Positions 4,980 to 32,913 of a stretch of DNA of 64,000 nucleotides are shown here, in pieces. The notes under the pieces were generated by a model. It ran no database searches, was not told the DNA's origin, and was given only the letters and a program-made list of their open reading frames with translations. Each line of letters opens with the position of its first letter. Position 1 is the first letter of the stretch. Both the position numbers and the translations under genes were made by a program. This DNA is from Tricholoma matsutake (Eukaryota; Basidiomycota; Agaricomycetes; Agaricales; Tricholomataceae): the NCBI GenBank assembly GCA_026075535.2, contig AP026544.2:8184001-8248000 (forward strand), read 5' to 3'.

Positions 4980-5097
4980 TCAAAAGTAGATAATGGAGTC
5001 TTGATGATTGGAAGTCTGCTTATGGCTATGCAACTTATGTAATGATCAACATTGGATATATTTACTTGAAACTTGAGAGATGGTCAAATAACCAACC

Positions 5098-5832: not shown

Positions 5833-5964
5833 TGGAGAGAGACTTACCTATGGAATTATATATTGGACCATCATTATTTACATTTGGACCATGAAAGATA
5901 TTCGAATGTATGTGAAATGATTACAACAATATAAAACCACCCTGCAAAATGGAAGTGAGATCAA

Positions 5965-6733: not shown

Positions 6734-6751
6734 CACTTATGTACTACTACT

Positions 6752-10369: not shown

Positions 10370-10579
10370 GAGATGTTGGTTGCTTGTGTGAACTGCTGAC
10401 TAACCATCAATCATTGGATGCGAGGGTCCCAGGGCAATTCAGACCTGCCAGTGGTGCCAAAGAAATTCATTCACTCATAGCTCTTAATGGATCACTTTGT
10501 GATTATCGATATTGACTGATTGATAGATGCCTATGATAGTATTTCGAGAGCATTCCAATGAAATGTGCAAATCATCACC

Positions 10580-11795
10580 ATGGTTCCTCCCCATCAGCAA
10601 AATTCCTCACAGCAAGAGCTTTTTGCTCAAATTGCTCAGCAACTTGTTGTTCTGATCATCAACATTGTCATTCCTGAAACCTTGAAGATTATACAGCAGT
10701 ATTATTTCAAGGAGCCATGTTACATGTCAATTCTCACAGGGCAGGCTTGGGTCAATGAACTACTCCATGGTCATCCGAAGCGCATTCGCACAGCTCTTGG
10801 AATGAATAAGCAAGTTTTCAGGGCTCTCGTGTCTGTATTACGAGGGATGGGCTATGGGGATTCCAATTACATCACTCTTGAAGAGCAGCTTGCTATTTTT
10901 CTATATTGTTGTGTCACTGGTCTTCCTATCTGCCATCTTGAGGAAAGGTTTCAACATGCTCCCAAGACGATATCTGTGTAAAGAATTCATTTATTTCTGC
11001 TATCATCATTTTGGACTCATAGGTTCACAGATACTTCCATAAAATGGCTCGTATCTTTGCATTTGCTCCTTTCAATTCCAAATACATAAAACAAATATCC
11101 CCCAACAATCCACCTTCATCAAGACTTTTCAACAATCTGAAATTATGGCCTTTTCTCTGATCTGCCCTTGGGGCAATCAATGGTAGCCACATCCATGCCA
11201 CTGCTCATGCTGAGTATCATGAAGCATGGCGCAACTGGAAGGGCTTCATATCACAGAACTGCTTGTTCAGTTGTTCATTCAATCTTCTTTTCACATGTCC
11301 TTACCGGATGGGAGGGCTCTGCATCAGATGCCCAAGTTTATGAAAGTGCAATCTCTGATGATCTTATTGTACCTGAGGGATTGTATCTCCTTGCTGATGC
11401 AGGCTTCCCACATTGCAAGGAGCTTCTTGTTCCCTACCACGGCATCCATTATCATCTTGCTGAATGGGGGCATGCCTCATTACAGTATGTTTGTGTTTTT
11501 CAGTATAAGGCATGCCTAAATTCATGAAATGTCCAGACCACAAAATAAAGAGGAGCTTTTCAACTTGCGTCATGCTCAGGCAAGAAATGTAATTGAGTGC
11601 ATTTTTGGAGTTCTCAAGAAGCGCTTTCACATACTTTTGATTGGCCCAGAATATGACATGACAATCCAAGCACAAATTCCGGCAGCATTGTGTGCTATAC
11701 ATAATTTTATTTGCATTCATGATCCTCACAAAGAAGAACTTGCAAGTGAAGAATACCCAAACCAAGGTGGCCACACTGGTGATGGCTTTGTGTGA
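10580..11795 (+). pseudogene. Harbinger-type DDE transposase, decayed
   Basis: The N-terminal helix-turn-helix region (10580-10978, ending at a GTGTAAAG donor) has the family's GHPKRI, ALGMNKQVFRAL and LEEQLAIFLY signatures. The catalytic fold follows: the GAI-D-GTHI motif reads GAINGSHIHA (11170-11200), so the first Asp is Asn (AAT at 11179-11181). The second Asp is intact in GWEGSASDAQVYE (about 11315) and the Glu is intact in ARNVIECIFGVLKKRF (about 11585-11630). A TGA at 11158-11160 just before the first motif and a frameshift near 11285 break the frame. The last exon begins after an intron at about 11487-11531. It is catalytically dead as written. Confidence 0.85.
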
Positions 11796-11986
11796 CAAGC
11801 CAGCAATGTAGAAGACAACAACCCAAATGGGGCGGTTGCAGGTCGGCAAAACGAGATTGCACAGTCAATGTGGAATAGCTATCAGGCAATTTTGCAAGAA
11901 TGCGAGGCCAGTGACGACGTTGATGAATTTTTGTACAATACAGATGTAGAGTAATACAGTGTACAGTACAGTTAGTGTACAAAAAT

Positions 11987-13464
11987 TTAGGATACAGCTG
12001 GCTTCAAGATCGTTTGAAGAGCATAACACAATGTATTTTCCCGCTGCACATCAGACATGGCTATGAGACTACTGGCAGCATTTGGATTATTGCTATAATA
12101 GAATGAAAGAGCACCTCGTTCATTATCATCAATATGGTCTGCATTTTTGATCAGCTCCATTGCCAACTCAATTTGCCGCGCATCCGATTGAAACAGGCTT
12201 TGTTGCATAGTCATATTAAGATTGTTGATGGCCCCAGTTGCTCCAACGAGAGCAGAGATGCTTGTATTGGTCTTTGTCGATGTTGTTGCACTTGATTGTG
12301 GCTTTGAAGCAGTTTTGGATGGTGGCCGATTGGGCATGTGATCATCCCCTGATGCCCATTTGCATTTTCCTGATGACTTCGATTTCACTGAGGGCATGCT
12401 AGGAGCTGATGCTGGGGTAGGGGGATGTGAGGATGCTGATGTAGGGGGATGCGAAGATGCCAAAGCAGGGGGCTGTGAGAATGCTGACATAAGGGGATGC
12501 GAAGGGGGCTGTGAGAATGCCAAAGCAAGTGGGGCTGAGGATGGAGTCGTTGTTGGGACTGATAGGATAGAGAGCAAAGATGAGGCTGTTGCAGGTAGTT
12601 GGCCTAGTAAAGGACGTGACAACGTTGATGGGAGGGCTGGATCAACAACATCCATGAAAGTCGAGCCATCTTGTGTGGCAGGAAAGATGATCCTGGCTGA
12701 AGACGAAGGGGCAGCATGCCCAGTCTCATTAACCTCACCATTCCCATCAATCAAGAGGTTGGGAGGGGCTTGGGCAGTGCCCCTGTGTGCAAATTGACCT
12801 TTCATGATAGATTTCTCCATGATTGCTTGCATTTTCACATATTGTGGAAATGATGCATTGAGGAGCTGACGACAGTACCTTTTCTGTGATTTGAAGGTTA
12901 GATACATATGAAAATAACAATATAATAGGAATGTACCCGATCCTTCCCTAAATTCTTCTCAAAATCCTCATAATGTTGAAGCTCAGCACTTGTTTGTGCC
13001 CAGATACCTGATCCAGCAGGCATTGCACCCATTCCTGACCTTCCATAGTAATCCTCAACCACCCTGTACATATCTTTATACTAGTAGAATGGTAAAATGG
13101 AGGAAAAGGATGTAGAATGATTATATCATGCACCATAGTAAACTTGGCTTTGATGGCAGCTATTGTTCATGGAGAATGTGGGTGCTTGCAGTTTAGCTGC
13201 TGTCCAGACAACTGGCTTGAAGTTCCCTGGAGAGCTGGCTTCAGAACGGTGGTTGTACAAGAAAGCAACGAGGTCTTCAATTTCTTGATCTGACCACTTC
13301 TTCACTTGACTCTTCACTGCTTCGGATGTTGTGGCATCATCAGCATTGATGGAGGGGAGCACATCCATAAGGATAGGGAGACAGATCTGTACAGCAGCAG
13401 CTGCATAGTGAAGAATGTGTTGATGTAGATTATCAATTGGCATATAATCGAAACCTAGAGACAT
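11987..13464 (-). CDS. Myb/SANT-like DNA-binding protein of Harbinger
   Basis: Exon 1 (from ATG 13464 to about 13149) carries a Myb/SANT-like segment beginning KKWSDQEIEDLVAFLY and ending in a W-TAAKLQ helix. The next exon (about 13073-12940) continues with the ELQHYEDFEKNLGKD motif common to these accessory proteins. The last exon (about 12900-11987) is a Ser/Pro-rich disordered linker with an imperfect repeat (ASSHPPT) and a C-terminal helical tail. In Harbinger elements this second protein binds the termini and brings in the transposase. It converges on the transposase gene with about 190 bp between stops. The frame looks intact, and the donor after exon 1 (GTTTAC) is weak. Confidence 0.7.
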
Positions 13465-13507
13465 CGCGGGAGGGAGGCGGAGAACGAAGCGGCACCCACC
13501 GGCAGGT

Positions 13508-14416
13508 TACCCTCTGTAAAAAAGGAAATTTCTCAGTCACGTGATAGTTAGGTGCAAGTCAACAAAGTCAGGTAAATGTTAAAAAACTGGTCAAAATGTC
13601 AGGTCAAAGAATGCAAAGCTAGTAGTAGTAGTAGTAGTAGTATTCAAGTAGTATTGAAGAAGATGGTAGGGAGATTTAGTGGCTATCATGTGACTACATG
13701 ATCATGACATATCAAGTCTATCACACAAATGACATTTGTACAATATTCTAACTGAATAGATTGTTAGACATGTTAAGAATTTAAGGTTTTAACTCAAAAA
13801 CTCCAAGTTTTGTTTTGTTCAGAACATAAGTAGATGGTGATGTACAAACCACAATTTACATTAGATCAGAAACTTCTAACCATGAAACAACCAATGACAC
13901 TTGTTCCTCATGATCTCATCTTATCTTTGAAGAATGTATATTATGGGGATTTATGATTTAGACAGTGCTTTTTTTCTTATGCCTTTTTACAACCAAACTA
14001 TCTAGAAGTGATGCCAACTGACTCAAATATATGACTTCATACTAGGTGACAAAAAGAAAGTTGACAAGTGGTTTGATTAAACTGAAAGATTGGTCTCCAA
14101 ATGATCACTGATATGATTTCTGAGCATTTCTGAGCATTCCTTGGAGCATATTGGTCAATATGTGTGATCAGTGACTGGACTCATACAATTAGGGGCTTTT
14201 CAAGACTCAGGATCGATGGATTAATTAATGATCAACAATGATTGACAATGATCAAAATTGATCAACCATGATCGACCATGATCAACAATGATTGGTATAA
14301 TTGATTCCATAATGAAATGATTTCCCCTGCATCCTGATTTGTACTTGTTTCAATACCACAACACCAAAAATACACTTATCCACCATCACATCACATACAT
14401 TACATCACTATACGCT
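13508..14416. other. intergenic; microsatellite and GATCAA-type repeats
   Basis: No gene is seen. It holds a (TAG)n microsatellite at about 13619-13642. At 14220-14300 a run of about 10-13 bp units of ATGATCAAC type occurs before the promoter side of the next gene. The rest is AT-rich without visible structure. Confidence 0.6.
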
Positions 14417-16646
14417 ATGCCAGCTGAAGCCCATGTTCCTCCCGAACTCATCCACTTTAAGCTGACAGGGGAAGATGTGGAAATCCTAGAAGCCAGAAAG
14501 GAACAATGGCAAGAGGAAGATTGTTCACAGCAGAACAGAATTGGTCAGAAAGTTTATGATGAAATGAAGAAAAATAATCCCCACTGGTCTAGGAAAGATA
14601 AGGAGTTGAGGAAGAAGGTCAGTTCATGAATTGGAAAGTATTTTGCAATGCCTTTGAACAGGGCATTTTTGAACAGGGTGTATATGCTTGGTTCCATACA
14701 TATGGAAGAACTAGAGAATCGTCTGAGAAATTTAAGGGGATCAAGAAATGGATGGGTAGAAGGGTTCTCGGCGTTCAGGCAAAAGGGGAGTTAAAGGAAA
14801 CGATTCAAGGAAAAATGGGTGGATGGGTAGAAGATACTTCATGCAAGGCGGACAATCAAAAGGCATTTGGCACATACCAGAAGGAGTTGAGTAACCTTTG
14901 GGGGAAGACATCAGAAGCAGAGAAAAGGAAGATGGAGGACCTGGCCAATATATGGAATCGAATGGGTCCCCCAGCTGAGGAGCAAGCAAGGTAGGTCATT
15001 CACATTGAATTTTGGTATTATCAATACTAATGCAGAACAGGAATGCAAAACAGGCTCATAAGCATGTGAAGTCCTTCTGCAAGCAAATGAAAAAGTCTTG
15101 TGGAATGGACTGTTTGGTATTAACATGCCACAAGGAAGTGAATGGAGTACTTGTCACGAACACGTTAAGTCTGTTCACTGTCTGAATTTGTTTCTGCCAG
15201 TTAAACCTTTTTCTTTGTAGGCATGAATTTATGGGAGATCTTGGAGGGAAGTCTTTCTTCCAAGCAAACAAAGATTGGGATACCAAGCCAATCATGGGGC
15301 TTCTAAACATGCATGCAAAGGAGATGTATTGTAAATGGATAATTTCTCATTGGAAAGATTCAAAATAATTGTCTTTTGTTAGCTGCAGCTGAAGAAGCAA
15401 AGTTCCAAGTTCCTATTGGAACCTCAAGTCAAAAGCCATATGTTCAGTTGGATATGGATGCCAATGGGAATCCATTGCTTCCTGAGCCGACTGACTGGCC
15501 AAGCAAAGGGATGGATAAGAAAGCGTTAATCAGGTCATATGTTGGGTCAGTATGGTCGGCAATCATTCGTTCATTCTCATCCCAGATGACTTGTCAGGTC
15601 TGGCTTGCAGTAATGAACATGCAATCCCTCCTTGGATGTCGTTCATTGAAGATGCAGATAAGTACTTTGGGAGGATCAGGTTCCTGATGGTTTCAAGCTT
15701 ATGGATCCATTGAGGATGAAGGACCACCAGATCAAGGAGATTTTGACATTTTGGTACTCTAATCAGGAAAGTGATGGTTTTGGTTTCAAATTCTATCAGG
15801 ACAAAAAATTGAAGGGAAAGAAGAGATCAAGAGATGATTCCGATTCTGATTCTGATTCCAATGCTGATTCCAATGCCAAAACACCAAGCCGCCCAAGCTG
15901 CCCAAGGACCAAGAAGAGTGAGAGGGAGGGTAAAGGCAAGGAAAAGAGGGTGGAGAAGCCTGAGGAAAGGTGGACTGACCATATTGTTCCAGATTCAAGA
16001 AGGCGTAAATGGAGGGCTCCCACATTAAATGAGGTTGAGGAATCGGGTGAAGTGTTTGATTTCACATTGGTCGATCAGATGGAGTCATCAGAAGAGGAAG
16101 ATGTAATGCAGTCTGGACAACTGAAGGTTGGGCCAAGCAAGACACCAATTCTGATCAAAGGAAATTCCAGAAATAGCAAGATGCAACCAGTTAGGAAACA
16201 GCAGAAGCTCAGCCTGGCGACGGAACTTGTTTGAAAGAGTACGATGCAACCTTTAAGCAAACAGACTGGTAGGGCCATGGATGCTGGGAAGAGTGCCAAC
16301 ACTGCGACAAATGAGTATGAGATTCAGGGGGGGAATCAGCAAGAACCAGAGATGATGCAGAAAGGAAAGGTGATGAAATCGAGGTTGGCTGAGAAGATAA
16401 AGGAACCACCGAAGAAGAAGCCAAAAGTTTCTATCAATGTGCCTGCTCATTCACAGTCATTGGGTAAGCTTGGTCTATTTTGTCCAAGATGATGAATAAT
16501 TGAAATGTCCTGCAGTTTTGAAGCCCCCTCAAAGGTGGTCTACTCGAAACACAACTGAAAAACCAGTACCAATAAGTGAGCAGCCTAATTTAAAGATAAT
16601 TCCAAAGAAGGCAGAGATGAAGAAACGAAAGGGAAGGAAAATGTAA
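14417..16646 (+). pseudogene. multi-exon gene of unknown function, decayed
   Basis: ATG 14417 opens exon 1 (to 14617); exon 2 is about 14678-14990, exon 3 about 15036-15170, exon 4 about 15221-15334 and exon 5 from about 15382. The later part (15701-16234) is strongly charged, with a Ser-Asp repeat and basic blocks, then continues to a Lys/Arg-rich end at 16646. The N-terminal half, with KVYAWF-like and KMGGWVEDT segments and a following Lys-rich helix, resembles a protein type I have seen beside Agaricomycete transposons, but I cannot name a domain. A TGA at 16232-16234, in a context suggesting loss of a CGA, and frame changes near 15560-15690 suggest a relic. It may be nuclear given its basic stretches. 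Confidence 0.55.
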
Positions 16647-16685
16647 ACATAGAATAGTATCCAGACAAGCATAGTGGTCTTTGTT

Positions 16686-17775
16686 TGGAATTTTTGAGCA
16701 TTCACTATAGACAAATGACCTGACAAAATGACCCGACAAAATGACCCAACGAAATGACCTGACAAAATGACCCAACAGTAGATGACCCTACTAGATGATT
16801 TGACAAAACGACCCGATGCAATGACCCGACAAAATGACCCAACAAAACAACCCAACAAAATGAGCCAACAAAATGAGCTGACAGTAGATGACCCTACTAG
16901 ATGATCTGACAAAACGACCTGATGCAATGACCTGACACAATGACCTGACCAAAGCAACCCAACACTAGATGACCCGACAAAATGACCCAACAAAATGACC
17001 CAACAAAATGACCCAACCAAAGCGACCCAACACTAGATGACCCGACACCAGATGACCCAACAAACGACCCGACAAAATGACCCGACAAAATGACCCGACA
17101 AAATGACCTGAGAAAATGACCCAACAAAATGACCTGACAGTAGATGACCCAACAAAATGACCCGACAAACTGAGCGCCTGACAAAATGACCCGATGACCT
17201 GACAACATGACCCAACAAAACCAACCCAACACAGTAGCTGACCCAACACTGGATGACCCAACAAAATGACCCGACAAAATGACCTGCCATTAGATGACCT
17301 GACAAAATGATCTGATGAAATGACCGGACCCAATGATGACCTGACAAAATGACCCAACAAACTGATTGCCTGGCAATATGGCCTGATGACCTGACAAAAT
17401 GACCTGACCAAACCGACCCGACACTAGATAACCCGACACTGGATGGCCCCACAAAATGACCCCACAAAATGATCACCTAGCCAAGTAACCTGAGGATGTG
17501 ACAAAATGACCTGACTAAAGGACCCGACAAATTGACCCAATAAGTATTGTGACCTGACAATAGATGACCTGACACAAGATGACCCGACACTAGATGACCC
17601 AACAAAATGTCGGGTCATTTTGTCCAGGTCATTTTGTTGGGTCATTGGGTCATTTTGTCGGGTCATCAGGTCATTTTGTTGCGTCATTTCATGAGATCAT
17701 GTCAGGTCATGTTGTTGGGTCATGTTGTTGGGTCATTTTGTTGGGTCGTTTTCTCCAGTCATCATTTTGTCACGT
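16686..17775. repeat. foldback satellite 2 (same 13-bp unit)
   Basis: About 900 bp of ATGACCCGACAAA-type units (16700-17608) meet about 165 bp of the reverse complement (17609-17775). Unit and polarity are as in the copy at 5965-6733. The right edge has CAGTTATGTACTAG, compared with CACTTATGTACTAC in the first copy, so the two share an end sequence. It lies between the 3' ends of the genes at 14417-16646 and 17853-20492. Confidence 0.9.
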
Positions 17776-17852
17776 CAGTTATGTACTAGTTTGCATGCAG
17801 TAATCCATGAACGCCTATCTTACCAAAGCTGTTGACAATAATCATTTTAACA

Positions 17853-20492
17853 CTACAATAATATTTCCCAGTTATACTGACAATCCCTGTCCAATTCTTC
17901 ATTGGATTCGTCGATTGCCATGGCAAAAGAATCTCTATCATATTCATCTTCCATTCCTGACACTGGAGATTCCATTATCCTAGGCATGACCATCCTAGGT
18001 CTCTCAGCCTCCTGTTCCTTTGTTATTGCGCCATCACTCTCATCTACATTCTCAACCTCTGGCATGATATTCAATGCAACCTCCGGGGCTACCACTTGTG
18101 AAGCCATCTCTCATACATCCTGTCCACTCACCAAAGCTGCATGGGATGGTCCCCCAACAGGTCATTCTTCCTCCATTGCAGCATCAGAGGTTCGATGATA
18201 CTGACCGGAAGGATTCGGACTTGGTGTAATCCTGAGTTTGTTCAGCTGTAACATGCTGGGCTGAATAATGTCATTGGAGACTCTTGAACTCCTTGGAGTG
18301 ATAACGGGTGATGTGAAATCATTAGGGGGATAAGGAGAGGGATATGGGACAATGTTCATAGAATGTGAGGGATAGGGTGATGATGAAAAGTGGGATGGTG
18401 GCATGCTGAGACTCTCCATGGCACCTCCATCCTCAGGTGTTTGGCAGTTGGAGGGCGTTGTAGGTTGGGACATGACTTTGGTCAACGTTTGCCGATGCTG
18501 TTCCAGGAGTGCAGTATGGGCATTGTGGTTGCTGATAAGCACCCTTTGGCTCATTTCCATTGCTACCATCATCTCCTTCATCTTCCTCATCTCCTCTCGC
18601 ATCTCTGTGACCTCCTTAGTCAGTTGGTTATTCTCCCATTGAAGCTGTTGCACCATTGCCATTTCTCCCTCAACACTTGCCTCACCATTGTTGACAACTT
18701 GGACAGCCTCACTGACCTGTTCCCCTTTCCGATTTACGAAGTAAAGGTACTCCGATGGTACCTGCCCCAATGGATGCACTGTTACTGCCCCTGGACTCCC
18801 TCGGCAAGTCTCTCCACCATCCGACATGGCTTTGTCCTCATCCATCTTCCTGAATTTCGACTTGGATCGACTTCTTGGCTTTGCTTTTCCTGTCGCCTTT
18901 GGTGTTGCCACTGCTGCCCTTGTTGGTTTTGAAGTCATCCCTCTCTTTGGTGTCACTGGTGGCTTTGGCATCAATCCCCTGCTTGGGGTTGATGAAGCCT
19001 TAGCTGCCTCAGGTGGCCTTGAAGTGCTTCGGGTCCTGGTTGATCAGCATAGGCTTGGGTTCGATGGGGAGGGTTCCAACATGTTTTCATCACCCAACGC
19101 AGGTGTTGTTGGGGTTGCTCTTGGTTCTGACTTGATGACCTATGTCTTTCCTTCCTTTGTCACTGTCACTTTCCCTCTTGTCCACCACTCCCCAACAACC
19201 TTTGTACACTTCTGCTTGCAACCTCGACATGACAAACAAGCAGTGTTGCCTGCATACATGCATCTCACCTCCAGCTTCACACACCTTGCACAAGCCTCCG
19301 TGTTGCCCAAATTCGGCAGATGCATGGTCTTTGTTCCAGGCTTCATGCTTGATTTTGACGTTGTTGCCTTGGGTTGTGATCTTCTTGAGGGTTGTGATGA
19401 CCCCTCCACAGGCTGGTCGATCTCCTCCGAATCCACATCCATCACCTCTGCTGTATCCTTCTGCTTTCCTTTAACATCCACCTTCTTCATCCTGCTCTGC
19501 CCTCTCTCTCCTGCTTCTTCCAACCAGGCCTCTTCCTTTATCTCATCAGAAGAGTCATTCACATACTCACTGCTTTTGATATGAGTCTGTGAATGGCTCC
19601 TCCGTCCCATGGGAGTCATTTTCAAAAGCTGGTATTGTGTTGACGGATCCACTGTCATTCTGGCCAAAGGAATGCTATGATGACTTGAAGCTGGGCCAGT
19701 TGAAGTGGGCGGTGGGGGAATAATTTGCAACATTTCATCCCTCAAATGAATCTGGATGTTGCCTGGGATGATGATTGGATTTATTATAGAGGCAGCTACT
19801 CCATTCCGAACTGCACGAGGTACTATATGTGATTCAATATGTAGATAATTCAAGCTAAACTGAGTGAAACCTACCTGGTGTCTGATGCCCTTCTGAAAAC
19901 CACTCCTGAGTACTGCTGCCCTCCTCTGAAAGCATCGGGTGGTACCACAACAAGGGGTCTTCCCACTTTATCTTGCCAAAGTCGACTTCTGTTCCTTGAG
20001 TATCAGCTTGGTCAAGCTGCAAGGCCGCGCTGATGAGCAGATGAGATGGGACAAAGTCATATCTGCCATCTCCCTCACATTCCGGTACATCTTGAGCACC
20101 TGATGAAGTAGTGTACTAGGAAGTACAGTTAGAAACTCATTGACAGGTAAATTGAGTTAACGTACAATCCAACTCTTCAATTTTTCCTCATTTACTGTAT
20201 AGCCTCGGCCATGTTGTAGAAGAACAATCTCCAGCTTGCACTCGTCGATCCATACCAACAACTGTTGCCCAACGAGGGTATTCAATCCCTGATTTGATAG
20301 AAATGATACATTATAGGATGAAATTTGGATAGTTAACAGACATACTGGTGAGTTTGGAAGTTCTTGAAGGAGTAGTAAAAGATCTTCATCACCTCCGAAG
20401 ATGGCCTTTGTGACAGATCGATGGAGATGTGGTTGAATGGAAGGGAGGATGTCGTTGATGTAAGATTCAGCAACTTGATTGTAGGAAGGCAT
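17853..20492 (-). pseudogene. zinc-cluster-like, coiled-coil protein, decayed
   Basis: Exons run from about 20492 to 17853. The N-terminal exons (about 20492-19880) include an acidic WYHPMLSEEG-type segment. A long exon then carries a cysteine motif (about 19305-19215) of the form C-x2-C-x6-C-x7-C-x2-C-x3-K-x2-C, similar to but not identical with fungal Zn2Cys6 clusters. A basic linker follows, then a Met/Glu-rich coiled coil (about 18660-18520) and a Ser/Pro-rich C-terminus. The layout suggests a DNA-binding or nucleic-acid-associated protein, which is inference. Several TGA codons (for example two between 18180 and 18100) and a TAG near 19138 interrupt it. Confidence 0.55.
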
Positions 20493-20672
20493 TTGCAGAG
20501 TTGATATCCGAAGCTGAAGGGCAAAGTATTGTTAATTGATTGAGTGAACAATGTTGAAGTACTGGATCAGTATTGTTTGCAAGAATCCGATCGGAACCAC
20601 ATGGTAAGTCACTTGATCAATCGAGAACTTGTGTACTAAAACAATTCAAACATCCCCGAAACCAATATTCCA

Positions 20673-21979
20673 ATGCCAAAGATCAAGGTAAGTGAATTGT
20701 AATACTAATTTAGTTGTAATTACATTGTTTTCAGGTGGTCCCGAAATCAAAACAACCTGCTCCCTCTATGCTGGACTACCAACCCTCATCCAGACTGACA
20801 AAGCATCGAAAGTTGGACTTATCTTCGGATGGCAGTACATCTGCTGTCCCCAACCCCAACACAGCTCTGCTAACTCTTTCTACTGCTGAAATTGAGCCTC
20901 TGATGGTTCATTCTGGATTTCAGCCATCTTCAAAACTGAGAACTCGTCCGAAACTGAGCAGATTGATGGTCGCCAGTACCTCCACCCTCCCTGAAACACT
21001 GGCACCTCCTCAGGTTCCAATAGCCATGATGAGACTGCCAGCTATCCATCCCCAATTTCAAGAGGGTTCTGTGGGGGGACTCATTCCATCTTCCCAATTC
21101 TATGGCATGCCAGCACCCACACTTCCACTTGGTGGATATGTCGAGGAGGGTGATGATAGACATGTGAGGTTCAAGAGTCCACTGGAGGAGGGAACCCCAC
21201 TCCACATACGACAGGTGACTATAAACAAGCACCGGATGGAAGGAATTATGGAAGGAAATGTTAAGTTAGATTCGCTACTTCCACTGCCGTTGCTGCCCCC
21301 GCCTCTTCCTCTCAGGACAAGGCCTGTATTCATTCCTCACCCACCAACACCCCCAATTGTCACCATCCTGAAAACTCTGTCATCTCCAGCCTCCGACCCC
21401 ATTGACTTTGCTTCTACACCTGACTATGATGTCGGAATGACAATATGCGGTGAGAAACAGCCATCCCCAAAATGGCCATGATCTCATACACCGCCTTCTC
21501 CGACCTCTGAAGACAATCGATCACCCAAACCAGAAACTGAGGAAGAGGAGCAGGTGGACCAGCTGGGGGATGATGGTGGCGATGAATTGGATGAGGTGGA
21601 GTTTGTGGAGGAGGAGAATCTGCAGGAGACGGTGGGGATAGTGGAAGTGGATGACATCATGCTGGGATCTGGGAAAGTGGTGAAGGGAAAGGGGAGAGCA
21701 GTAGAGGATCGGGGGGAAGGAATGATTGAAGAGTCAGTGGCTTCAGTCCGCTCCTTCCTCTTGCAGCCTGGCATCAAGGAGTTGATGAAGGATTTGGGTT
21801 TGGAAAGTGGAAGTGGAGAGGCAATAAGAGGCATTGAGGTAAGGACAACAGCAAAGGAAAAGCAGGCCATCCTGCTCTCCAGGTTGTTGGAAGCAGAGTT
21901 ATATCTTGCAGCTGGTGTTGAACAACTGCATGATTGCCTCAAGACATATGTAGCTAACAATTCAAAATTTGAGTTGTAG
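20673..21979 (+). pseudogene. Pro/Ser-rich protein with acidic C-terminus, one stop
   Basis: A 5-codon first exon (20673-20687) is spliced over a 47-nt intron (GTAAGT donor, TACTAAT branch site, TTCAG) to a long exon from 20735. The product is disordered and Pro/Ser-rich, then acidic (about 21540-21660), then ends in a helical segment with a leucine-rich stretch (about 21740-21960). A TGA at 21479-21481 splits the frame, which continues in phase, so it fits a CGA to TGA change. Function is unknown. It is divergent from the zinc-cluster-like gene, with about 180 bp between starts, and is the last gene before the right end of the giant element. Confidence 0.55.
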
Positions 21980-22954
21980 TTTACATTATTTTAATGAATG
22001 CCAATATTGGGATGTAAGCTTGAAGCAGGAATGAGTACATCAGAGTGAATTATATTATCACTGACACTAACACTACTTAAATATATTAGGCTGGAACAGT
22101 CCAACAAAAGTATAGAAAAGTGGAAATATACTGATGTTCTGATCTGATGTTCCCACATTGATGAACCAATTCCAATGGTACTAACCTCAATGAAATTCCA
22201 ACACAATGGACTTACATCAATGGAACAATCTTCTCCCGATGTACCTACCCTGATGGTTCAATCCCGACATTCTTACCCTGGTGGACCAATCAAGATCTAC
22301 TCACCGAGATGGTTCAATCCTGATGTACTCACCCCGATGGTTCAATCCAGCCACAAGTAGAGGACAAATAAATATTCAAGGTCTACTATGAATCTATGAT
22401 GCTGATATGTAATATGGGCATTTGCTACCATGTAGTCTCTTGGAAGGCTAAGATGTAGCAATGGTAAGAGCCTCATCTCATTGTCTAATACACTGCTAAC
22501 ATGACCTACATGGGCCTACCATAACATTCATAGTCTACTGCTTCAATATGTCCTATAGGCCCACCCATCAGCCATGGTCTGCTCCAATGCTAACATATCA
22601 CATAGGCCCACCCATTATACATGATCCATACCAGTCCCAAAATTACACTTGGGCCCACCCCATCATCCATGGTCTACTGCTAAGTCCTCATGTCCTATAA
22701 GCCCACCCATCATCTATGGTCTATTCCAATACTAACATATCCCATGGGCCCACCCATCACATGTGGTATAAAGCTCTACTCATTTCACCCATGAGCCCAT
22801 TCAATTTAAATGAACTTATACCTGCCAGATGAGCCCACACATCTTCTATGGTCTATTACAGTCTATGGGCCCACATTAGCTGGACCATTAAATATGGCCT
22901 AAAGCCACCATTAGTTAGTCCATATATAATGGTCTAAAGTCACTGAGAGTTGTG
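21980..22954. repeat. right inverted end of giant element
   Basis: At 22180-22350 there are short repeats with CCGATGGTTCAATCC. From about 22440 to 22900 come seven or eight diverged units of about 60 bp with GGGCCCACCCATCATCCATGG-type cores, the reverse complement of the units at 2.3-2.5 kb. The CCACCATTAGTTAGTCC block near 22905 mirrors the left end. No gene is seen. Confidence 0.7.
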
Positions 22955-23607
22955 GACCATGACCCAGCACCCACCCCCACCAGTGCGAGCATCTGCTCAT
23001 GGGGTGGTTCAGGGGGGAGAAGAATGGGGACAGGAGAGCGAGACGGCCAGGGGACAACTCAGGGAGAGATGAACGCCGCCATGGGCAACTGTTGCTCATG
23101 GTGGGTGTTTTTAATTTATTTTTATTATTGATAGTTACAGCCCCCTCCCCTCGAGCTTGTGAGGGGAGGGCTTAGTATTATTTTAATTACCCATATTAAT
23201 TACCCCTCGCACAGATGCAAGGGGGACAATTTAATAATCTATGCATGATATATATAAAAATTAGATTTCAGTAATAAATAGATATGATGTATGTAACTTG
23301 AAATGACTACTTGGCTTAAGTGGTAGAGTGTGCATGTTTCATCATCATGTGATTGCTAGTCCAGAAGGCTGTTGGTTCAATTCCTGCTGTGCACACATTA
23401 TTTTGTGAGACTTATAAGACTTTCTCTAAGACTTTCTCTAAGACTGGAACTCAGACTTTACTTGGACAGTACTTTAGAAGGTGTAAATAAATGCACAATT
23501 GATGTTGTCTGAGCAGAGTCCAAGTGAAGTCCTTGGACAGTCTGAGTGTCCGAGTGTCTGAGCAGAGTCCGAGTGGAGTCCACTCAGACTGGGGGGGGCA
23601 GTGTAAA
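22955..23607. repeat. right half of interrupted TIR scaffold element
   Basis: From GACCATGACCC it matches the scaffold copy at 23.7-25.4 kb in reverse. It contains GAGCAG-type hairpins (22985 and 23085), two GC-rich hairpins in AT-rich spacers (23141-23171 and 23203-23227), an outward tRNA-like module, subterminal GTCCGAG repeats, and the terminus GGGGGGGGCAGTGTAAA ending at 23607. Confidence 0.75.
23312..23384 (+). other. tRNA-like module (A and B box)
   Basis: The A box TGGCTTAAGTGGTAGAG (23312-23328) and B box GGTTCAATTCC (23374-23384) are close to consensus and correctly spaced. A partial T-stem can be drawn but there is no matching acceptor stem. It reads outward to the terminus at 23607. 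The other-strand twin is at 23947-24011. Confidence 0.65.
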
Positions 23608-23716
23608 GTACTGATACATATATGGGTAGTGTCTCATGGAGATGGGTCCCCCTCCAGTTAGAGCCTGTCCATTAAATCTGACCTAGTTGCAGTAAGTGAG
23701 TCAAGCCAAGCAGTAC
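23608..23716. other. 109-bp spacer between two inverted scaffold elements
   Basis: Single-copy-looking sequence bounded by GTAC on both sides. It separates the right terminus of the interrupted scaffold from the left terminus of the complete one, so the pair forms a large inverted arrangement around it. Confidence 0.6.
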
Positions 23717-23946
23717 TTTACACTCCCCCCCCAGTCTGAGCGGACTCCACTCGGACACACTCGGACACTCAGACTGTCCAAGGACTTCACTCAGACTCTG
23801 CTCAGACACTCGGACTGTCCGAGGACTTTGCTCAGACTTTGCTCAGACAACATCAATTGTGCATTTACTTACACCTTTAAAGTATTGTCCAAGTTCCAGA
23901 CTTACAGAAAATCTTATAAGTCTCACAAAATGATGTGTGCACAGCA

Positions 23947-24011
23947 GGAATTGAACCAACAGACTTCTGGACTAGCGATCACCAAACATGCACACTCTAC
24001 CACTTAAGCCA
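23947..24011 (-). other. tRNA-like module (A and B box)
   Basis: Minus-strand A box TGGCTTAAGTGGTAGAG (24011-23995) and B box GGTTCAATTCC (23957-23947). It is almost identical to the module at 23312-23384 and reads outward to the terminus at 23717. Confidence 0.65.
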
Positions 24012-24506
24012 AGTAGTCATTTGAAGTCACATACATTATATCTATTTATTACTGAAATCTAATTTATATATATATATATCATGAATAGATTATTAAATTG
24101 ACCCCCTCGCATCTGTGTGAGGGGTAATTAATATGTGTAATACTAGGCCCTCCCCTCGCAAGCTCGAGGGGAGGGGGCCATAACTATCAATAATAAAAAT
24201 AAATTAAAAACACCCACCATGAGCAACTGTTGCTCGTGGTGGCATTTGTCTCTCCCCAGGTTGTCCCCTGGCCGCCTTGCTCTCCTGTCCCCATTCTTCT
24301 CCCCCCCAAACCACCCCACGAGCAGATGCTCATAGGCATGGGGTGGGTGTCATCATGGGTGTCCCCACTCATTGTTGTCTCCCTTCCCTCTCGTCTCCCT
24401 TCCCCCTCGTCTCTTCACCCTCACCTTCCACCCTGTGAGCAGGGGCTTGCAGCAGTGGTGGTAGTGGTGTCCCACTGTCGTCGTCGTTGCCAGTAGTAGT
24501 TTGTAC

Positions 24507-24595
24507 CTATAAAAAGTTAGTTAGCATTGAAAAATGAAATGAGAAAAGAAAAAAAGCTTACCTAGGACCCAAGAGACATTGATGTCTCTTGGGTC
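24507..24595 (-). other. palindrome plus 55-nt mini-intron
   Basis: The near-perfect palindrome GACCCAAGAGACATTGATGT plus its complementary arm spans 24567-24595. Five bases later on the minus strand is a GTAAGC donor (24561). The intron has a T-rich tract, GCTAACTAAC branch site and TTTATAG end at 24507. All consensus intron signals are present. Confidence 0.65.
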
Positions 24596-24854
24596 TCCCC
24601 TAATCATCATTGTTCCACCCATTGTCCACCCTATGAGCAGTGGCTCATAGGGTCGGGGCAGGTGGTGTCGTTGTTCCCTGTCATCATTGTTCCACCTGTC
24701 ATCCACCCTATGAGCAGTGGCTCATAGGGCTGGGGCAGGTGGTGTCATCATTCCCTGTCATCATCGTCGTCATTAGCAGCTGTTCTCCCATGCGAGCAGT
24801 TGCTCATAGGCATGGGGTGGGTGTTGTTGTGGGTGTCCCCACTCGTTGTCGTCT

Positions 24855-25065
24855 CCCTTCCCTCTCATCTCCATTCCCTCTTGTCTCCATTCCCTCTTGT
24901 CTCCCTTCCCTCTTGTCTCCCTTCCCTCTTGTCTCCATTCCCTCTTGTCTCCCTTCCCTCTTGTCTCCCTTCCCTCTTGTCTCCCTTCCCTCTTGTCTCC
25001 ATTCCCTCTTGTCTCCCTTCCCTCTTGTCTCCCTTCCCCCTTGTCTCCCTTCCCCCTTGTCTCTT
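24855..25065 (+). repeat. 16-bp minisatellite TTGTCTCCCTTCCCTC
   Basis: About 13 tandem units with CCC/CCA variants. Because 16 is not a multiple of 3, all frames stay open by chance over long stretches; no protein is implied. It sits between GAGCAG hairpins in the middle of the scaffold element. Confidence 0.9.
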
Positions 25066-25149
25066 CACCCTCACCTTCCACCCTGCAAGCAGGGGCTCAC
25101 AGCAGTGGTGGTGGTGGTGTCCCCCCATCATCGTCGTTGCCAGTAGTAA

Positions 25150-25245
25150 TTTGTACCCATAAAAAGTTAGTTAGCATCCAAAATTGAAATGAGAAAAGAA
25201 AAAAAGCTTACCTAGGACCCAAGAGATGTTGATGTCTCTTGGGTC
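25150..25245 (-). other. second palindrome plus decayed mini-intron
   Basis: A duplicate of the module at 24507-24595. The palindrome is at 25217-25245, with GTAAGC donor at 25211 and GCTAACTAAC branch site, but the acceptor ATAG reads ATGG, so splicing at this site should fail. Confidence 0.6.
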
Positions 25246-25467
25246 TCCCCTAATCATTGTCGTTCCACCCATCGTCCACCCTACGAGCAGTGGCTCATAG
25301 GGCTGGGGTGGGTGGTGTTGTCATTCCCTGTCATCATCGTCACTGTTAGCAGCCGCTCTCCCCCATGTGAGCAGTTGCTTGCAGGGGTGGCTGCTGGGTC
25401 ATGGTCTTGTTGTTGTTCCTCATTTGGTGGGTTTGGGGTCATTGTGCTGCTACAGTATAGATATAAC

Positions 25468-25568
25468 CTATAATTAATGAAAAAATGTGTTAGCTTATAG
25501 AAAACATGAGAAAAGAAAAAAGAAAAAACTCACCTGGGGCCCAAACAACTCTATTGTCGTTTGGGCCC
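25468..25568 (-). other. third palindrome plus 66-nt mini-intron
   Basis: The palindrome arms GGGCCCAAAC and GTTTGGGCCC (25536-25568) precede a GTGAGT donor (25533). The branch site is GCTAACAC and the acceptor TTATAG (25468). It is the inverted twin of 1967-2067. Confidence 0.65.
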
Positions 25569-25810
25569 ATTTCGTCGTGTGCTGGCATGGGGCCCATGGC
25601 TGTGGGGTGTTCAGGGGGCAGTGGCAGCAGCAGGACGTGGGAGGGAGGTGTTGTCATCGAGTGGTGGTGGTGGTGGTGGTGGTGGTTGGTGGTGAATGAT
25701 GATGATCGATGATGAGCTGGCATCATTGTTGGTGATGTGGCTGTGTTGATTTGTCATCACAGCTGGGGCGGTACATAGAGAGATAAAAACTATCTACCTG
25801 TAATGATACT

Positions 25811-25875
25811 TTAGTCTAATGGTTATATTGTTGCCTTAAATGTACTTTATCATGTGACTATGAGGGTTCAATCCC
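25811..25875 (+). other. tRNA-like module (A and B box)
   Basis: A box TAGTCTAATGGTTA (from 25812), typical of Asp/Glu-type tRNA D-arms, and B box GGTTCAATCCC (25865-25875). Outward-reading twin of 1681-1746. Confidence 0.6.
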
Positions 25876-26209
25876 TGCGGTAGCCACTGATTTTTTGGTC
25901 AATTATATAAGCAACTCAGACAGTCCTAGGACTGTATGAGTCCTGGTCCACTCGGACTCCGCTCGGACTGGACATTTAGTTTGGCAGGACTTTCAGCCAA
26001 AGAAGTCTGAGCAGAGTCCGAGCAAAGTCCTCGGACAGTACTCAGACAGTACTCGGACAGTCTGAGTGTCCGAGCAGAGTCCGCTCAGATTGGGGGGGGG
26101 AGTGTAAAGACCTCTATATGTATCAGGCTTCCAAATGGAGAGTGAGTCACTTGGATTGCTAATGGATTAATAGTAATATAATTTTGAAGCCTACTACATC
26201 TTATGATGA

Positions 26210-28599: not shown

Positions 28600-29290
28600 A
28601 TTCAGAGGTACTACACTATTATGTACATAAAAGATAACTCCCCTCACATTTGTGTGAGGGGGCAGCGCAACAATAATAAACTGAAAAATAATAATTCCCA
28701 CCCTGCACAAAATGCAGGGGAGAGGGTCATCCAAAGTGTAAAAAATAAAATAAACTAAGGGACACCCTCCTTGCAAAGGATGTGAGGGAGGGGGGTTAAG
28801 GGTGTGGGCCCATGGTATCATTGTGTTGCACCATGTTGTTGTTGCCATCCTTGTGGCCAGCCCACTGTTTTCTCACCCCTGTCATCGACCACCTGCAATC
28901 CACCATGCAGTGGCTTGTAGTGGTAGGGTGGGGTGCTCAGGTAGTCCTGGGTCATTGTTGTCATCCCTTCTCCTTGTCGTTGTTGTCCCCACATCCCTGC
29001 CCATTTTGTTGTGGTCCCTGTCCTTGTCCTTGTTGTCATTGTCTTGTTCTGGTCCTGGTTCTCATATTGTTGTTGTCCTCTGTCATCCTCCTCCTACCCC
29101 CTGCAATCCACCCTGTGAGCAGGGACTCACAGCAATGTGGCAGGTACTGGGTCAGCTTTGTTGTCCTGTCTTTGTCATCAGCAGTTCTAGTTGGTGCCTA
29201 AAAAAGTTTGTTAGTAACAAAATAATGAAATGAGAAGAAAAAAACTTACCAATGGCCCAAGAGATGTCATTTGACATCTCTCAGGCCTTT
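28600..29290. repeat. scaffold-type arm, left (hairpins and mini-intron)
   Basis: GC-rich hairpins stand in AT-rich spacers at 28639-28664, 28697-28727 and 28763-28798. GAGCAG-type hairpins lie at about 28901 and 29108. Then comes a minus-strand mini-intron (29250-29198, TACTAAC branch site, 53 nt) preceded by a palindrome at 29255-29288. It is mirrored at 31555-32245. No TTTACACTCC terminus is visible for this arm. Confidence 0.65.
29198..29288 (-). other. palindrome plus 53-nt mini-intron
   Basis: The palindrome GGCCTGAGAGATGTC with its partner arm lies just upstream of a GTAAGT donor. A perfect TACTAAC branch site and TTTTTTAG acceptor follow. Near-identical inverted copy of 31562-31652. 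Confidence 0.65.
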
Positions 29291-29889
29291 CATTTGTGTG
29301 CTTTGCCTCCTTCTCATTGTCACCCCCTCATCTCCCACTGTCTCATCATTCCATTGTCTGAGGAAATGTGAGATGGGGGTATTGGCCAGCTGGTAAATAC
29401 AATATGGTTGTGGGAATCAGAGGACATTTTGAGATTGGAAAATCCAGATGTTCATCCATCTGTCCATCTGTCTGCTTTAGGTAGCAAGCATAATTAAGTG
29501 TAAATAATGGTTGATATCATTGCTGCATGTCTTCCTCTCAACATTCATACACTGTGGTCATGTACCAAACTAACTTGACTTGTACTAGCTGCTGCTGACA
29601 AGTCCCTGCCCAGATATGTTGGTCGAACATCAATGGCAATGCTGGGTGATCATTTGTTAGCTGTGAGAATGTGCAACCTGATGGCTCCCAATGCAAGTAC
29701 TATCATTGGCTAACCCCAAAGTCATCACCAACTCTGACACCTACCTCATTTCCAGTACTTCCATCTCTGAGTCCCACACCTCCTGCTGCTCCCTCTTCAT
29801 CCATAGTGCTACCAGTCTCTTTGACCTCAGTTCCTTTGCCCTCACCAACAACCTGTGCAAGACCAGACTGCACTTCAACCTGAATCAAC

Positions 29890-31008: not shown

Positions 31009-31227
31009 AGAGAACTGGTCTGGCCTACCAACTTCTTTGTTGTTGATATTGTGGCTGCATTTTCTGCATGTGACAAGGCTCACCATTGTGGTCATAGTGT
31101 CGGTGATGCACAATATGGGACCAAACAATATGTTCATTTTCCCAACTGCACATCAACAACCTCAGCACACTACACCACTGTTGTTGATGCTGCCTACCTC
31201 CTATCCCTAGAACCAACAGCAGAAATT

Positions 31228-31324
31228 GGCCCATACAATGATAATGTTGTTTGGGCCCCTGGTAAGTCTATTATTATTATGTTTTCTTTTTATTCAACTA
31301 ACCTATATTTTTCATTTTTTATAG
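31228..31324 (+). other. weak palindrome plus 63-nt mini-intron
   Basis: Arms GGCCCATACAA and TTGTTTGGGCC are followed by a GTAAGT donor at 31262, a CAACTAACC branch site and a TTTATAG acceptor at 31324. The exon then continues CAACAAAATGACCCC, as after the intron at 2067. Confidence 0.55.
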
Positions 31325-31561
31325 GTTTTAATTTATAACAACAAAATGACCCCCAGATGATGACAATGGCCACTCACAGGACCATGAAAGCTCCCTCAAC
31401 CACCATTGCAAGCAACTGCTTGTGGGGTGGGAACACATGCAACTACAAATCAGCAAGAGAATGGCAATGCTGCCACCAGACCAAATGGAATGACAATGGA
31501 ACAACGAGACAGTGGGAGATGAGGGGGTGACAACAAGAAGGAGGCAAAGCACACAAATGAA

Positions 31562-32245
31562 AGGCCTGAGAGATGTCAAATGATGTCTCTTGGGCCATTG
31601 GTAAGTTTTTTTCTTCTCATTTCATTATTTTGTTACTAACAAACTTTTTTAGGCACCAACTAGAACTGCAGATGACAAAGACAGGACAACAAAGCTGACC
31701 CAGTACCTGCCACTAGGGCAAGGCAGGGGTTACCCCTGGGTGTCAAATCTCATACCCTTACCCCTACCCCTGAACACCCTACCCTTAGGGGTAAGGGTAT
31801 GGAAACATATAAGGGTTGCCAAGGGTGTGGGAGGGTTTGTCAAGGGTACAAGGGTTTGGCACAAAATCAACATATTTAGAGCAAAATTCATTTGAAAAGT
31901 GTTGATAACTATTGTATTTACTATTAATATCACATATTAATACCTCTTATTAACATATGAAAGCCATATTGGACAATCCCAAAATCTGAATTTAATTGAC
32001 AACAATCTTGAATATGAGTCAAAAAAATCAAATGATATTCTTACATAAGCATACCCCTGTACCCTTAGTAAGGGTACAGGGGTATGCAAGGGTATGAACT
32101 TCCAAACCCCTACCCTTACCCCTCATACCCTTAGCCCACAAACACAAGGGTATACCCCTACCCCTGCCTTGCCTTACCTGCCACATTGCTGTAAGTCCCT
32201 GCTCACAGGGTGGATTACAGGGGGTAGGAGGAGGATGACAGAGGT
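31562..32245. repeat. scaffold-type arm, right, with mini-intron
   Basis: A palindrome (31562-31595), GTAAGT donor (31600), TACTAAC branch site and acceptor at 31652 are followed by the sequence found reverse-complemented at 29090-29200. A MITE (31714-32176) interrupts it. Apart from that the homology resumes exactly and runs to about 32245. Confidence 0.65.
31714..32176. mobile_element. hAT-like MITE with 8-bp target duplication
   Basis: The ends are TAGGGCAAGGCAGGGGT and its near-exact reverse complement ending CTTA. They are flanked by the direct 8-bp repeat CCTGCCAC (31706-31713 and 32177-32184). The empty site exists in the inverted paralogue at about 29140, where CCTGCCAC occurs once. 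Internal sequence is (CCCTTACCCC)-rich at both ends and AT-rich in the centre. An 8-bp duplication with TAGGG-type ends points to hAT. It is non-coding. Confidence 0.9.
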
Positions 32246-32913
32246 AGGGTGTAGCATGTGTCACACCATGGGTAAATTTTCACACACTGCACCCATGCCT
32301 GTGTACACCATACCCATTCTAACACTGCAACTGCAGTGACAGGTTTTACCCATGGTCTGTTGCAGGTGCAACACCACAAATATACACTGTGGTTTTGACT
32401 CTTTTTTTCCCTTCTATTTAATGTTTGACATTGTTAAACATAGTGTATTGTGTTGTATAACCCTCAACTAACTTAATTACACCCTGTATACATACCTGAG
32501 CAACATACAACAAGGCTTTTTATTTGAAGAATGCTCACATTCACCTGAGGGGGCAACACAGATATTAAAATTTTTTATTAAACTAATTAACAGGGACAAA
32601 ACTAATTAATGATGAAAACCTCCCTCATGTTTCTTGTGAGGGAGGGGCCCACTCCCCATCATCCCTGGTGTCCTCATCCATTTCCCCCCCATTGTTTGTT
32701 GTTTGTCCTGCTTCATTTATTTGTTCCACTTCATTTGTTGTTGTTGTCCTTGTGGCTGGCTGTCCCCTCCCCATTGCTCCCCATTTCCACCCCGCAAGCA
32801 GTTGCTCACAGACATGGTTGGGGGTGCTGTGTGATGGTGGTGGTTGTTGTCCCCTTGCTGTCCTCCTTGTGTTGCTGTAGTCCTCATTGTCCACATGGCT
32901 TGTAGTGCAGTAC
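32246..32913. other. non-coding mosaic with hairpins
   Basis: No gene is seen. 32260-32380 is rich in short inverted CACACC and ACCATGGGT motifs. A GC-rich hairpin lies at about 32622-32648 (CCTCCCTCATG / GTGAGGGAGG). A GAGCAG-type hairpin lies at about 32793, consistent with another decayed scaffold arm. Confidence 0.5.

What the first reader, a model, noticed from the sequence alone, without database searches (positions are those of the whole stretch)
23717..26108. A family of non-coding TIR elements built from hairpins, tRNA-like modules and structured mini-introns
Two complete elements (23717-26108, 49077-51069), one split element (1436-2125 plus 22955-23607) and a truncated arm (32914-33430) share TTTACACTCCCCC ends and a fixed module order. 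That order is subterminal repeats, tRNA-like, GC hairpins, GAGCAG hairpins, minisatellite, palindrome plus intron, tRNA-like, subterminal repeats. The primary sequence of most modules differs between elements while the structure persists, which suggests selection on RNA or DNA folding. No coding capacity is visible. I know of no described element with this combination. A CACTA/Plavaka-like mobiliser is plausible from the CACTCC ends and subterminal repeats.
Basis: partly seen in the sequence, partly recalled or inferred. Interest (0 to 1): 0.9.

Follow-up and report, generated by a model that had tools for sequence, protein, structure and literature searches.

The report
Jumping DNA carrying tRNA-like ends
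A very common gene-less jumping DNA element in the matsutake mushroom carries a tRNA-like switch near each end, both pointing outwards; its many hairpins look more like by-products of DNA copying errors than like a selected RNA fold.

Summary
The elements are real: a large superfamily of non-autonomous TIR DNA transposons in Tricholoma matsutake (genome named by assembly lengths). The 13-bp end occurs 1086+1089 times against 51+50 for the reversed control. True ends lie 6 bp further out. The target duplication is mostly 8 bp, which argues against the proposed CACTA/Plavaka mobiliser. E1, S and T are one subfamily (80-87% identical); E2 belongs to a related one. The "split" element is an E1-type copy broken by a nested 20.8-kb TET+ Kyakuja-like transposon, and E1 and S have exchanged flanks, most simply by inversion. 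In 33 complete copies, strict outward Pol III A/B boxes stand at 31 L and 26 R ends (57 against 0.8 in shuffles). Intron consensus is nearly strand-specific (67 against 2). Hairpins are dense (110 against 0-5), but three tested in subfamily A show no significant excess of pairing over shuffles, and loops of intron-side hairpins occur in both orientations. That favours template switching plus CpG decay over selection on folding. No autonomous partner was found; transcription is untested.

The parts
23711..26114 (+). E1, complete element, subfamily A; L end CAGTAC-TTTACACTCCCCC, R end GAGGTC-TTTACACTCCCCC (read outside-in); probably recombinant by inversion with S
23948..24011 (-). E1 L tRNA-like module (A box to B box), pointing outwards
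   Evidence: (strict hit)
25812..25874 (+). E1 R tRNA-like module (A box to B box), outwards, T6 run 16 nt after the B box
24100..24242 (.). GC hairpins H1 and H2 and first GAGCAR hairpin H3 of the L arm
24851..25063 (.). 16-bp minisatellite, 13.3 copies
25468..25568 (-). palindrome (25537-25568) next to the 5' splice-site consensus of a 66-nt intron pattern (25468-25533)
24507..24596 (-). second palindrome-intron unit (55-nt intron pattern 24507-24561)
49071..51075 (+). E2, complete element of subfamily E; no matching TSD at this copy
49341..49414 (-). E2 L tRNA-like module
50753..50810 (+). E2 R tRNA-like module (2 mismatches over the two boxes)
1420..2135 (-). S, R arm of an E1-type element in inverted orientation
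22955..23613 (-). S, L arm of the same element
2136..22954 (-). 20.8-kb TET+ Kyakuja-like element nested in S (Tet_JBP 2558-3127, CxC2 9243-10106, both on -)
   Evidence: CA..TG termini and 7-bp duplication fit the Kyakuja description in PMC12730594
32908..33430 (+). T, truncated L arm, subfamily A
28600..29370 (+). fragment of a related element (GC hairpins, GAGCAG hairpin, palindrome-intron)
31106..32300 (-). second related fragment; 31492-31713 is a 96% inverted copy of 29137-29358
1411..1419 (.). TSD-1 copy a (CTTGGCTTG); copy b is 23702-23710 in reverse complement: flank exchange
26115..26123 (.). TSD-2 copy a (TATATGTAT); copy b is 23614-23622 in reverse complement

Best explanation
A superfamily of non-autonomous TIR DNA transposons, usually 1.7-2.4 kb, moved in trans by a transposase that makes 8-bp duplications (inferred: a Zisupton/Dileera-type KDZ or a hAT enzyme; partner not found). 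SHOWN: shared ends and TSDs, high copy number, six related subfamilies, a pair of tRNA-like Pol III-promoter modules per element facing outwards, intron consensus almost only in one orientation, hairpin richness, no coding signal in the exon tested. INFERRED: the tRNA-like modules are the functional part, since they vary less than their neighbours. Most likely they bind TFIIIC/Pol III at both ends, keeping the ends open or paired for the transposase in a genome whose copies show methylation-type CpG decay. The intron cassettes are probably relics of the 5' transcribed region of a lost or rare autonomous gene read from the R end inwards. The hairpins are probably kept perfect largely by replication template switching, which also flips their loops, while CpG deamination erodes them; selection on folding need not be invoked.
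For: Ends: 1086+1089 against 51+50. TSDs: of 31 complete elements with their own duplication, exact unshifted lengths are 21x8, 3x9, 2x7, 1x6, and 4 needing a shift or mismatch; the acceptance rule takes 62 of 16,002 mismatched pairings. Modules: strict A+B boxes 57 against mean 0.8, max 3 of 20 shuffles; L end 31 of 33, R end 26 of 33, all facing outwards; both ends in 25 of 33. Genome-wide 705+676 copies of the L-module A-box segment (<=1 mismatch), 0+0 control; of 37 exact ones listed on C1:0-5.38 Mb, 27 lie correctly oriented to an exact end, 3 by the opposite-strand control, about 1 at random. Constraint (24 copies of A): non-CpG-context sites with >5% variation 2% in the L module against 22% outside and 10-14% inside; R module 10% against 15% outside and 26-35% inside. 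Intron patterns 67 against 2; 56 of 67 have a >=9-bp hairpin ending within 6 nt of the 5' site, against 101 of 1340 random positions in the same elements. Loop orientation 9 TCTATY: 7 RATAGA over 16 copies, at least 6 changes on the tree.
Against: No transposase with these ends was found. KDZ, Plavaka, hAT and MULE hits listed on C1:0-5.4 Mb are not bracketed by exact ends (read by eye; for the first three only part of the candidates was scored). An about 8.2-kb copy with matching TSD (read by eye) holds a Gypsy ORF in the 3.5 kb fetched of its inside. No RNA or chromatin data. Cloverleaf pairing is near random, so an active Pol III unit is not shown. Module constraint rests on one subfamily and could partly reflect gene conversion between copies. 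H2 approaches an excess of pairing (120 of 2000 shuffles). The loop-flip tree is weak (1 of 13 inner branches starred), and exchange between copies could imitate recurrent flips. Template switching does not explain why the hairpins sit next to splice sites.
Confidence: 0.68

Rival explanations
1. Selection on RNA or DNA folding keeps the hairpins: a structured non-coding RNA, spliced and transcribed from the R end inwards, helps transposition.
For: 56 of 67 intron patterns have a >=9-bp hairpin ending within 6 nt of the 5' site, against 101 of 1340 random positions; hairpins are about 17-fold denser than in the rest of the window; intron consensus almost only in one orientation (67 against 2).
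Against: No significant excess of pairing within subfamily A for three hairpins; loops flip orientation.
Confidence: 0.2
2. The element is a decayed derivative of a protein-coding gene on the minus strand; the exon before the palindrome is a real N-terminal exon.
For: One frame is open from ATG to the splice site in 11 of 17 copies, while the other two frames carry stops in 17 of 17.
Against: Copies are homologous, so the stops are not independent; no codon-position bias and no synonymous excess; 7 of 17 exon lengths fall outside the commonest reading-frame class, and none of 19 alignment gap runs is a multiple of 3.
Confidence: 0.12
3. CACTA/Plavaka-mobilised elements.
For: CACTCC motif and subterminal repeats; Plavaka genes are abundant (167 matches) and one lies in the window at 60194-61354.
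Against: TSD mostly 8 bp against 2-3 bp for Plavaka and 3 bp for EnSpm (PMC12730594).
Confidence: 0.04
4. The TET+ Kyakuja-like element inside S is the autonomous partner of E1.
For: It lies between two E1-type arms and carries CxC2 and Tet_JBP.
Against: It has its own CA..TG termini and 7-bp duplication and interrupts E1-homologous sequence at one point; E1 termini and 8-bp TSD differ.
Confidence: 0.03

Closest known systems
Non-autonomous TIR DNA transposons / large MITE-like elements with 8-bp TSDs (hAT- or Zisupton/Dileera-mobilised)
   Same: TIRs, 8-bp TSDs, high copy number, no transposase seen, subterminal repeats
   Different: 1.7-3.3 kb; paired outward tRNA-like modules; repeated palindrome-intron cassettes; termini outside the TIR core differ at the two ends (CAGTAC / GAGGTC in subfamily A)
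Kyakuja-Dileera-Zisupton (KDZ) transposons of basidiomycetes
   Same: 8-bp TSD for Zisupton/Dileera (PMC12730594, passages); KDZ genes abundant in this genome (165 matches, 150 of 831 candidates scored)
   Different: No KDZ gene found bracketed by these ends; Kyakuja makes 7-bp TSDs
tRNA-derived SINEs (features recalled)
   Same: Pol III A/B boxes, often a T-run after them
   Different: Two modules per element, facing outwards, inside a TIR element with 8-bp TSD; no retroposon tail noticed (not searched for)
CACTA/EnSpm and Plavaka
   Same: CACTC-like motif, subterminal repeats (recalled)
   Different: 2-3 bp TSDs in those families, 8 bp here
Hairpin maintenance by template switching (PMC8794818, PMC8604942)
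   Same: Perfect arms with inverted loops/spacers
   Different: Described there in RNA genes and yeast coding DNA; here in transposon hairpins

Membership tests
TIR (DDE-type) DNA transposon, non-autonomous | terminal inverted repeats | tested here: met
   TTTACACTCCCCC-type sequence at both ends; the outer hexamers differ between L and R
TIR (DDE-type) DNA transposon, non-autonomous | fixed-length target duplication | tested here: met
   21 of 31 exactly 8 bp, 3 exactly 9; mismatched pairings accepted 62 of 16,002
TIR (DDE-type) DNA transposon, non-autonomous | autonomous partner with the same ends | tested here: inconclusive
   none found among listed KDZ, Plavaka, hAT, MULE hits on C1:0-5.4 Mb nor in the fetched part of an about 8.2-kb copy; only part of the genome examined
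CACTA/EnSpm or Plavaka | 2-3 bp TSD | tested here: not met
   8 bp; reference values from PMC12730594
KDZ, Zisupton/Dileera | 8-bp TSD | tested here: met
   shared with hAT, so not diagnostic
KDZ, Zisupton/Dileera | KDZ transposase inside an element with these ends | tested here: inconclusive
   not found among listed hits
hAT | 8-bp TSD | tested here: met
   usual hAT TSD of 8 bp stated in PMC12730594
hAT | hAT transposase inside an element with these ends | tested here: inconclusive
   one hAT hit 4.3 kb from an end lies outside a complete 2.2-kb element
tRNA gene | cloverleaf recognised by tRNA finders | tested here: not met
   ARAGORN 0 and Rfam 0 at gathering in the window, no tRNA family at E<=1 in two stretches; acceptor pairing near shuffled
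Pol III type 2 promoter | A box and B box at suitable spacing, T-run after | tested here: met
   57 strict hits against 0.8 in shuffles; T-run within 50 nt in 32 of 33 automatic L hits and 33 of 33 R hits (no control for the T-run); activity untested
Spliceosomal intron | 5' site, branch point, 3' site consensus in one orientation | tested here: met
   67 minus, 2 plus; shuffles 5.1 and 6.3
Spliceosomal intron | spliced transcript | not testable with these tools
   no RNA reads
Conserved structured RNA | compensatory change above chance | tested here: inconclusive
   three hairpins, 24 copies: shuffles reaching the observed pairing 1782, 120 and 477 of 2000; none significant at 5%, few varying pairs

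The most novel reading that the evidence does not exclude
A new structural class of DNA transposon in which a pair of outward Pol III/TFIIIC-type modules is an essential end component: the modules recruit the tRNA-gene machinery to both ends, pairing the ends or fencing the element off from DNA methylation, while tandem palindrome-intron cassettes make a spliced non-coding RNA. More than a thousand copies of one module would then make this element a major landscape of tRNA-like sites in the matsutake genome.
Probability: 0.2. Interest if true: 0.8.

Novelty: new variant of a known kind. Interest (0 to 1): 0.5.

Why it matters
If the tRNA-like modules are active, over a thousand outward Pol III promoters have been spread by a DNA transposon through one mushroom genome. 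That could affect replication timing, chromatin boundaries and nearby genes, and would be an unusual end architecture for a cut-and-paste element. The flipped loops also make this superfamily a natural test set, with many copies, for whether perfect hairpins are kept by selection or by replication template switching, a question that matters wherever covariation is taken as proof of RNA function.

Tried and rejected
Rejected: S as an autonomous KDZ element with E1 ends (the KDZ/TET part has its own termini). The ORF at 30226-31008 as a partner gene: homologues at two other loci (1.5-1.7 kb alignments) lack the element modules beside the gene. An about 8.2-kb TSD-matched copy as autonomous: the 3.5 kb fetched of its inside holds a Gypsy polyprotein. 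L042, L044, L059/L060, L061 and L062 as large autonomous copies: nested Gypsy, Harbinger-like or Helitron-like ORFs (families read by eye, not by a profile search), or short elements. The hAT hit near C4:6846627 lies outside a complete 2.2-kb subfamily-E element. Rfam matches at E<=1 (MIR533, mir-1784 and others) are below gathering scores; the MIR533 one spans the junction of two inverted ends. Coding exon. Papers: the listings of searches (titles and starts of abstracts; one returned nothing) showed no description of paired tRNA-like modules in a DNA transposon, nor of this element. A search of PMC6980582 for transposon terms found none of them. Absence holds for these searches only.
Full report
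Identity of the genome. The window lies in G000, 161,040,721 bp in 13 contigs. Total and contig lengths (for example 11,264,506; 10,203,996; 9,869,253) equal those of the telomere-to-telomere Tricholoma matsutake assembly (passages of PMC10211490). That paper leaves 25.4% of the genome as unclassified repeats and lists 2,342 'small RNA' repeats covering 1.94 Mb; whether the present elements are among them was not tested.

Ends and duplications. TTTACACTCCCCC occurs 1086+1089 times genome-wide, the reversed control 51+50. Reading flanks of fetched copies showed that the ends reach 6 bp further: in subfamily A CAGTAC on the L side and GAGGTC on the R side, both read inwards. Among 82 end pairs 1.5-3.5 kb apart in the fetched loci and window (overlapping loci repeat some pairs, and weak or chance ends are included), 42 had a duplication by a rule that accepts 62 of 16,002 mismatched pairings; the 40 not accepted include chance pairings and true elements without a readable duplication, among them E1 and E2. 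Without repeats, 31 complete elements have their own duplication: exact unshifted lengths are 8 bp in 21, 9 in 3, 7 in 2, 6 in 1, and 4 need a shift or a mismatch. Two of the 31 (L045, L050) share one target site and are segmental duplicates (flanks). Loci were chosen partly by similarity to E1 and partly from the first 5.4 Mb of contig 1, so subfamily A is over-represented.

What lies in the window. E1 is 23711-26114 and E2 is 49071-51075. S_L and S_R are the R and L arms of an E1-type copy in the other orientation, 87% and 84% identical to E1; T is a truncated L arm, 82%. Between the S arms lies 2136-22954 with its own CA..TG termini and a 7-bp duplication with one mismatch (GAGCATG / GACCATG), Tet_JBP (4.5e-19) and CxC2 (1.6e-19). 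This fits the TET+ Kyakuja description (7-bp TSD, CA..TG) in PMC12730594 (passages). Two points do not fit or are missing: the stretches just inside its ends look inverted-repeated by eye (sequence), where the paper reports no TIRs, and no KDZ-domain hit in the window is among those listed. The outer flanks of S and E1 are exchanged: 9 bp left of S equal the reverse complement of 9 bp left of E1, and the same holds on the right. The simplest reading is an inversion between two oppositely oriented copies, which would make E1 itself a recombinant. Fragments of a further relative lie at about 28.6-29.4 and 31.1-32.3 kb.

Subfamilies. 33 complete elements were studied: the 31 above plus E1 and E2. 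One further duplicated copy, L053_301_4315, was dropped because another element is nested in it. By ends they fall into A (24), B (4), C (1), D (2), E (1: E2) and G (1). That the subfamilies are related rests on short BLASTN matches (for example E1 to E2) and on reading the sequences, not on a formal tree. Subfamily-E ends occur 136+117 times genome-wide, control 0+0, and a second E copy shows AGCGGGAG/AGCAGGAG at its two sides (read by eye, not accepted by the rule).

tRNA-like modules. A strict A box (TRGYNNARNNG) followed by a strict B box (GWTCRANNC) is found 57 times in the 33 elements; dinucleotide shuffles give 0.8 on average, at most 3 in 20. All 57 face outwards: 31 of 33 L ends and 26 of 33 R ends, both ends in 25 of 33. 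All but one lie within about 450 bp of an end; the exception is in C, whose arm is lengthened. With one mismatch per box allowed, hits exist at all 33 L and 33 R ends, but the automatic hit at the L end of G was wrong, and a module with a poorer B box was found there by eye. A run of four or more T follows within 50 nt in 32 of 33 automatic L hits and 33 of 33 R hits (no control was made for this). ARAGORN and Rfam find no tRNA; acceptor pairing is 1.0-4.0 of 7 by subfamily against 2.9 shuffled, and the T stem is variable. So promoter boxes are kept and a tRNA is not. In subfamily A the L module is the least variable part: 2% of non-CpG-context sites vary in more than 5% of copies, against 22% outside and 10-14% inside; for R, 10% against 15% outside and 26-35% inside. 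An L-module segment occurs 705+676 times genome-wide (up to 1 mismatch), control 0+0. Of the 37 exact ones listed on C1:0-5.38 Mb, 27 stand correctly to an exact end, 3 by the opposite-strand control and about 1 at random; 10 have no exact end at the expected place.

Introns. The pattern GTRAGY..CTRAY..YAG occurs 67 times on the minus strand (30 of 33 elements) and twice on the plus strand; shuffles give 5.1 and 6.3. Of the 67, 56 have a >=9-bp hairpin ending within 6 nt before the 5' site, against 101 of 1340 random positions in the same elements; units are repeated up to four times. The first exon of A has one open frame in 11 of 17 copies, but codon positions vary equally and synonymous changes are as expected (22 against 21.1, s.d. 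3.8). No coding selection is visible among copies.

Hairpins: fold or copying error? Hairpins are truly dense (110 against 0-5 in shuffles; 7 in a similar length of background). In 24 copies of A, hairpins H1-H3 vary mainly at CpG positions; shuffled partners reach the observed pairing in 1782, 120 and 477 of 2000 shuffles, so none is significant at 5%, though H2 is near it. Loops of the first intron-side palindrome read TCTATC or TCTATT in 9 copies and GATAGA or AATAGA, their reverse complements, in 7, of the 16 copies in which it is intact; 17 of 24 A elements could be extracted and one of those lacks the palindrome. On a tree that leaves the palindrome out, at least 6 changes are needed, but only 1 of 13 inner branches is starred. 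Subfamily B shows GCAGATCGC and GCGATCTGC within one element, and a third unit of A shows both orientations; a fourth unit (CATCAAC-type) shows one orientation except in one copy. Template switching is known to homogenise arms and invert spacers (PMC8604942, abstract; PMC8794818, passages). It therefore explains persistent hairpins without selection, although it does not explain why they sit beside introns.

Mobiliser. An 8-bp duplication fits Zisupton/Dileera (8 bp) or hAT (usually 8 bp) and not Plavaka (2-3) or EnSpm (3) (PMC12730594). KDZ (165 matches; 150 of 831 candidates scored), Plavaka (167; 123 of 786), hAT (151; 150 of 449) and MULE (60; 97 of 97) hits are plentiful, but none of those listed on C1:0-5.4 Mb was bracketed by correctly oriented exact ends (read by eye). 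The comparison covers a small part of the genome and exact ends only, so the partner remains open.

Mechanism. Shown: the anatomy above. Inferred: trans-mobilisation by an 8-bp-TSD transposase; TFIIIC/Pol III binding at both ends as the selected function of the modules; introns as relics of a transcribed region read from the R end. SINEs acting as boundaries of DNA methylation in mouse (PMC8136502, seen only in the search listing) are a precedent for the boundary idea, not evidence here.

Noticed in passing
2136-22954: Nested TET+ Kyakuja-like transposon with Tet_JBP and CxC2 genes; the genome holds 61 Tet_JBP matches. It contains a further DDE_Tnp_4 (Harbinger-like) ORF at 11141-11527.
   Followed up: partly
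6005-6730 and 16713-17762: Two head-to-head pairs of 13-bp arrays (ATGACCCGACAAA-like, then its reverse complement) inside the nested element; meaning unknown.
   Followed up: no
60194-61354: Plavaka transposase ORF on the minus strand (PF18759, 5.9e-44).
   Followed up: no
29420-31106: Repeated gene of unknown function with a Cys-rich N-terminal part in one homologue; 61 matches in the genome, few of them close; two homologues are named hypothetical protein of T. matsutake.
   Followed up: partly
29137-29358 and 31492-31713: 96% identical inverted copies of an element fragment either side of that gene.
   Followed up: partly
45518-51989: Gypsy-type ORFs on the minus strand, with E2 lying among them (read by eye).
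   Followed up: no
26209-26471: 132-bp unit in two tandem copies about 95 bp outside the E1 R end.
   Followed up: no
L045, L046, L050; L043, L048; L044, L047: Elements with the same flanks at distant places of contig 1: segmental duplications of already inserted copies.
   Followed up: no
subfamily A copies: In the exon aligned, 52 of 68 distinct changes between copies are transitions, and the hairpin changes sit mainly at CpG positions, as expected from methylated-cytosine decay.
   Followed up: partly
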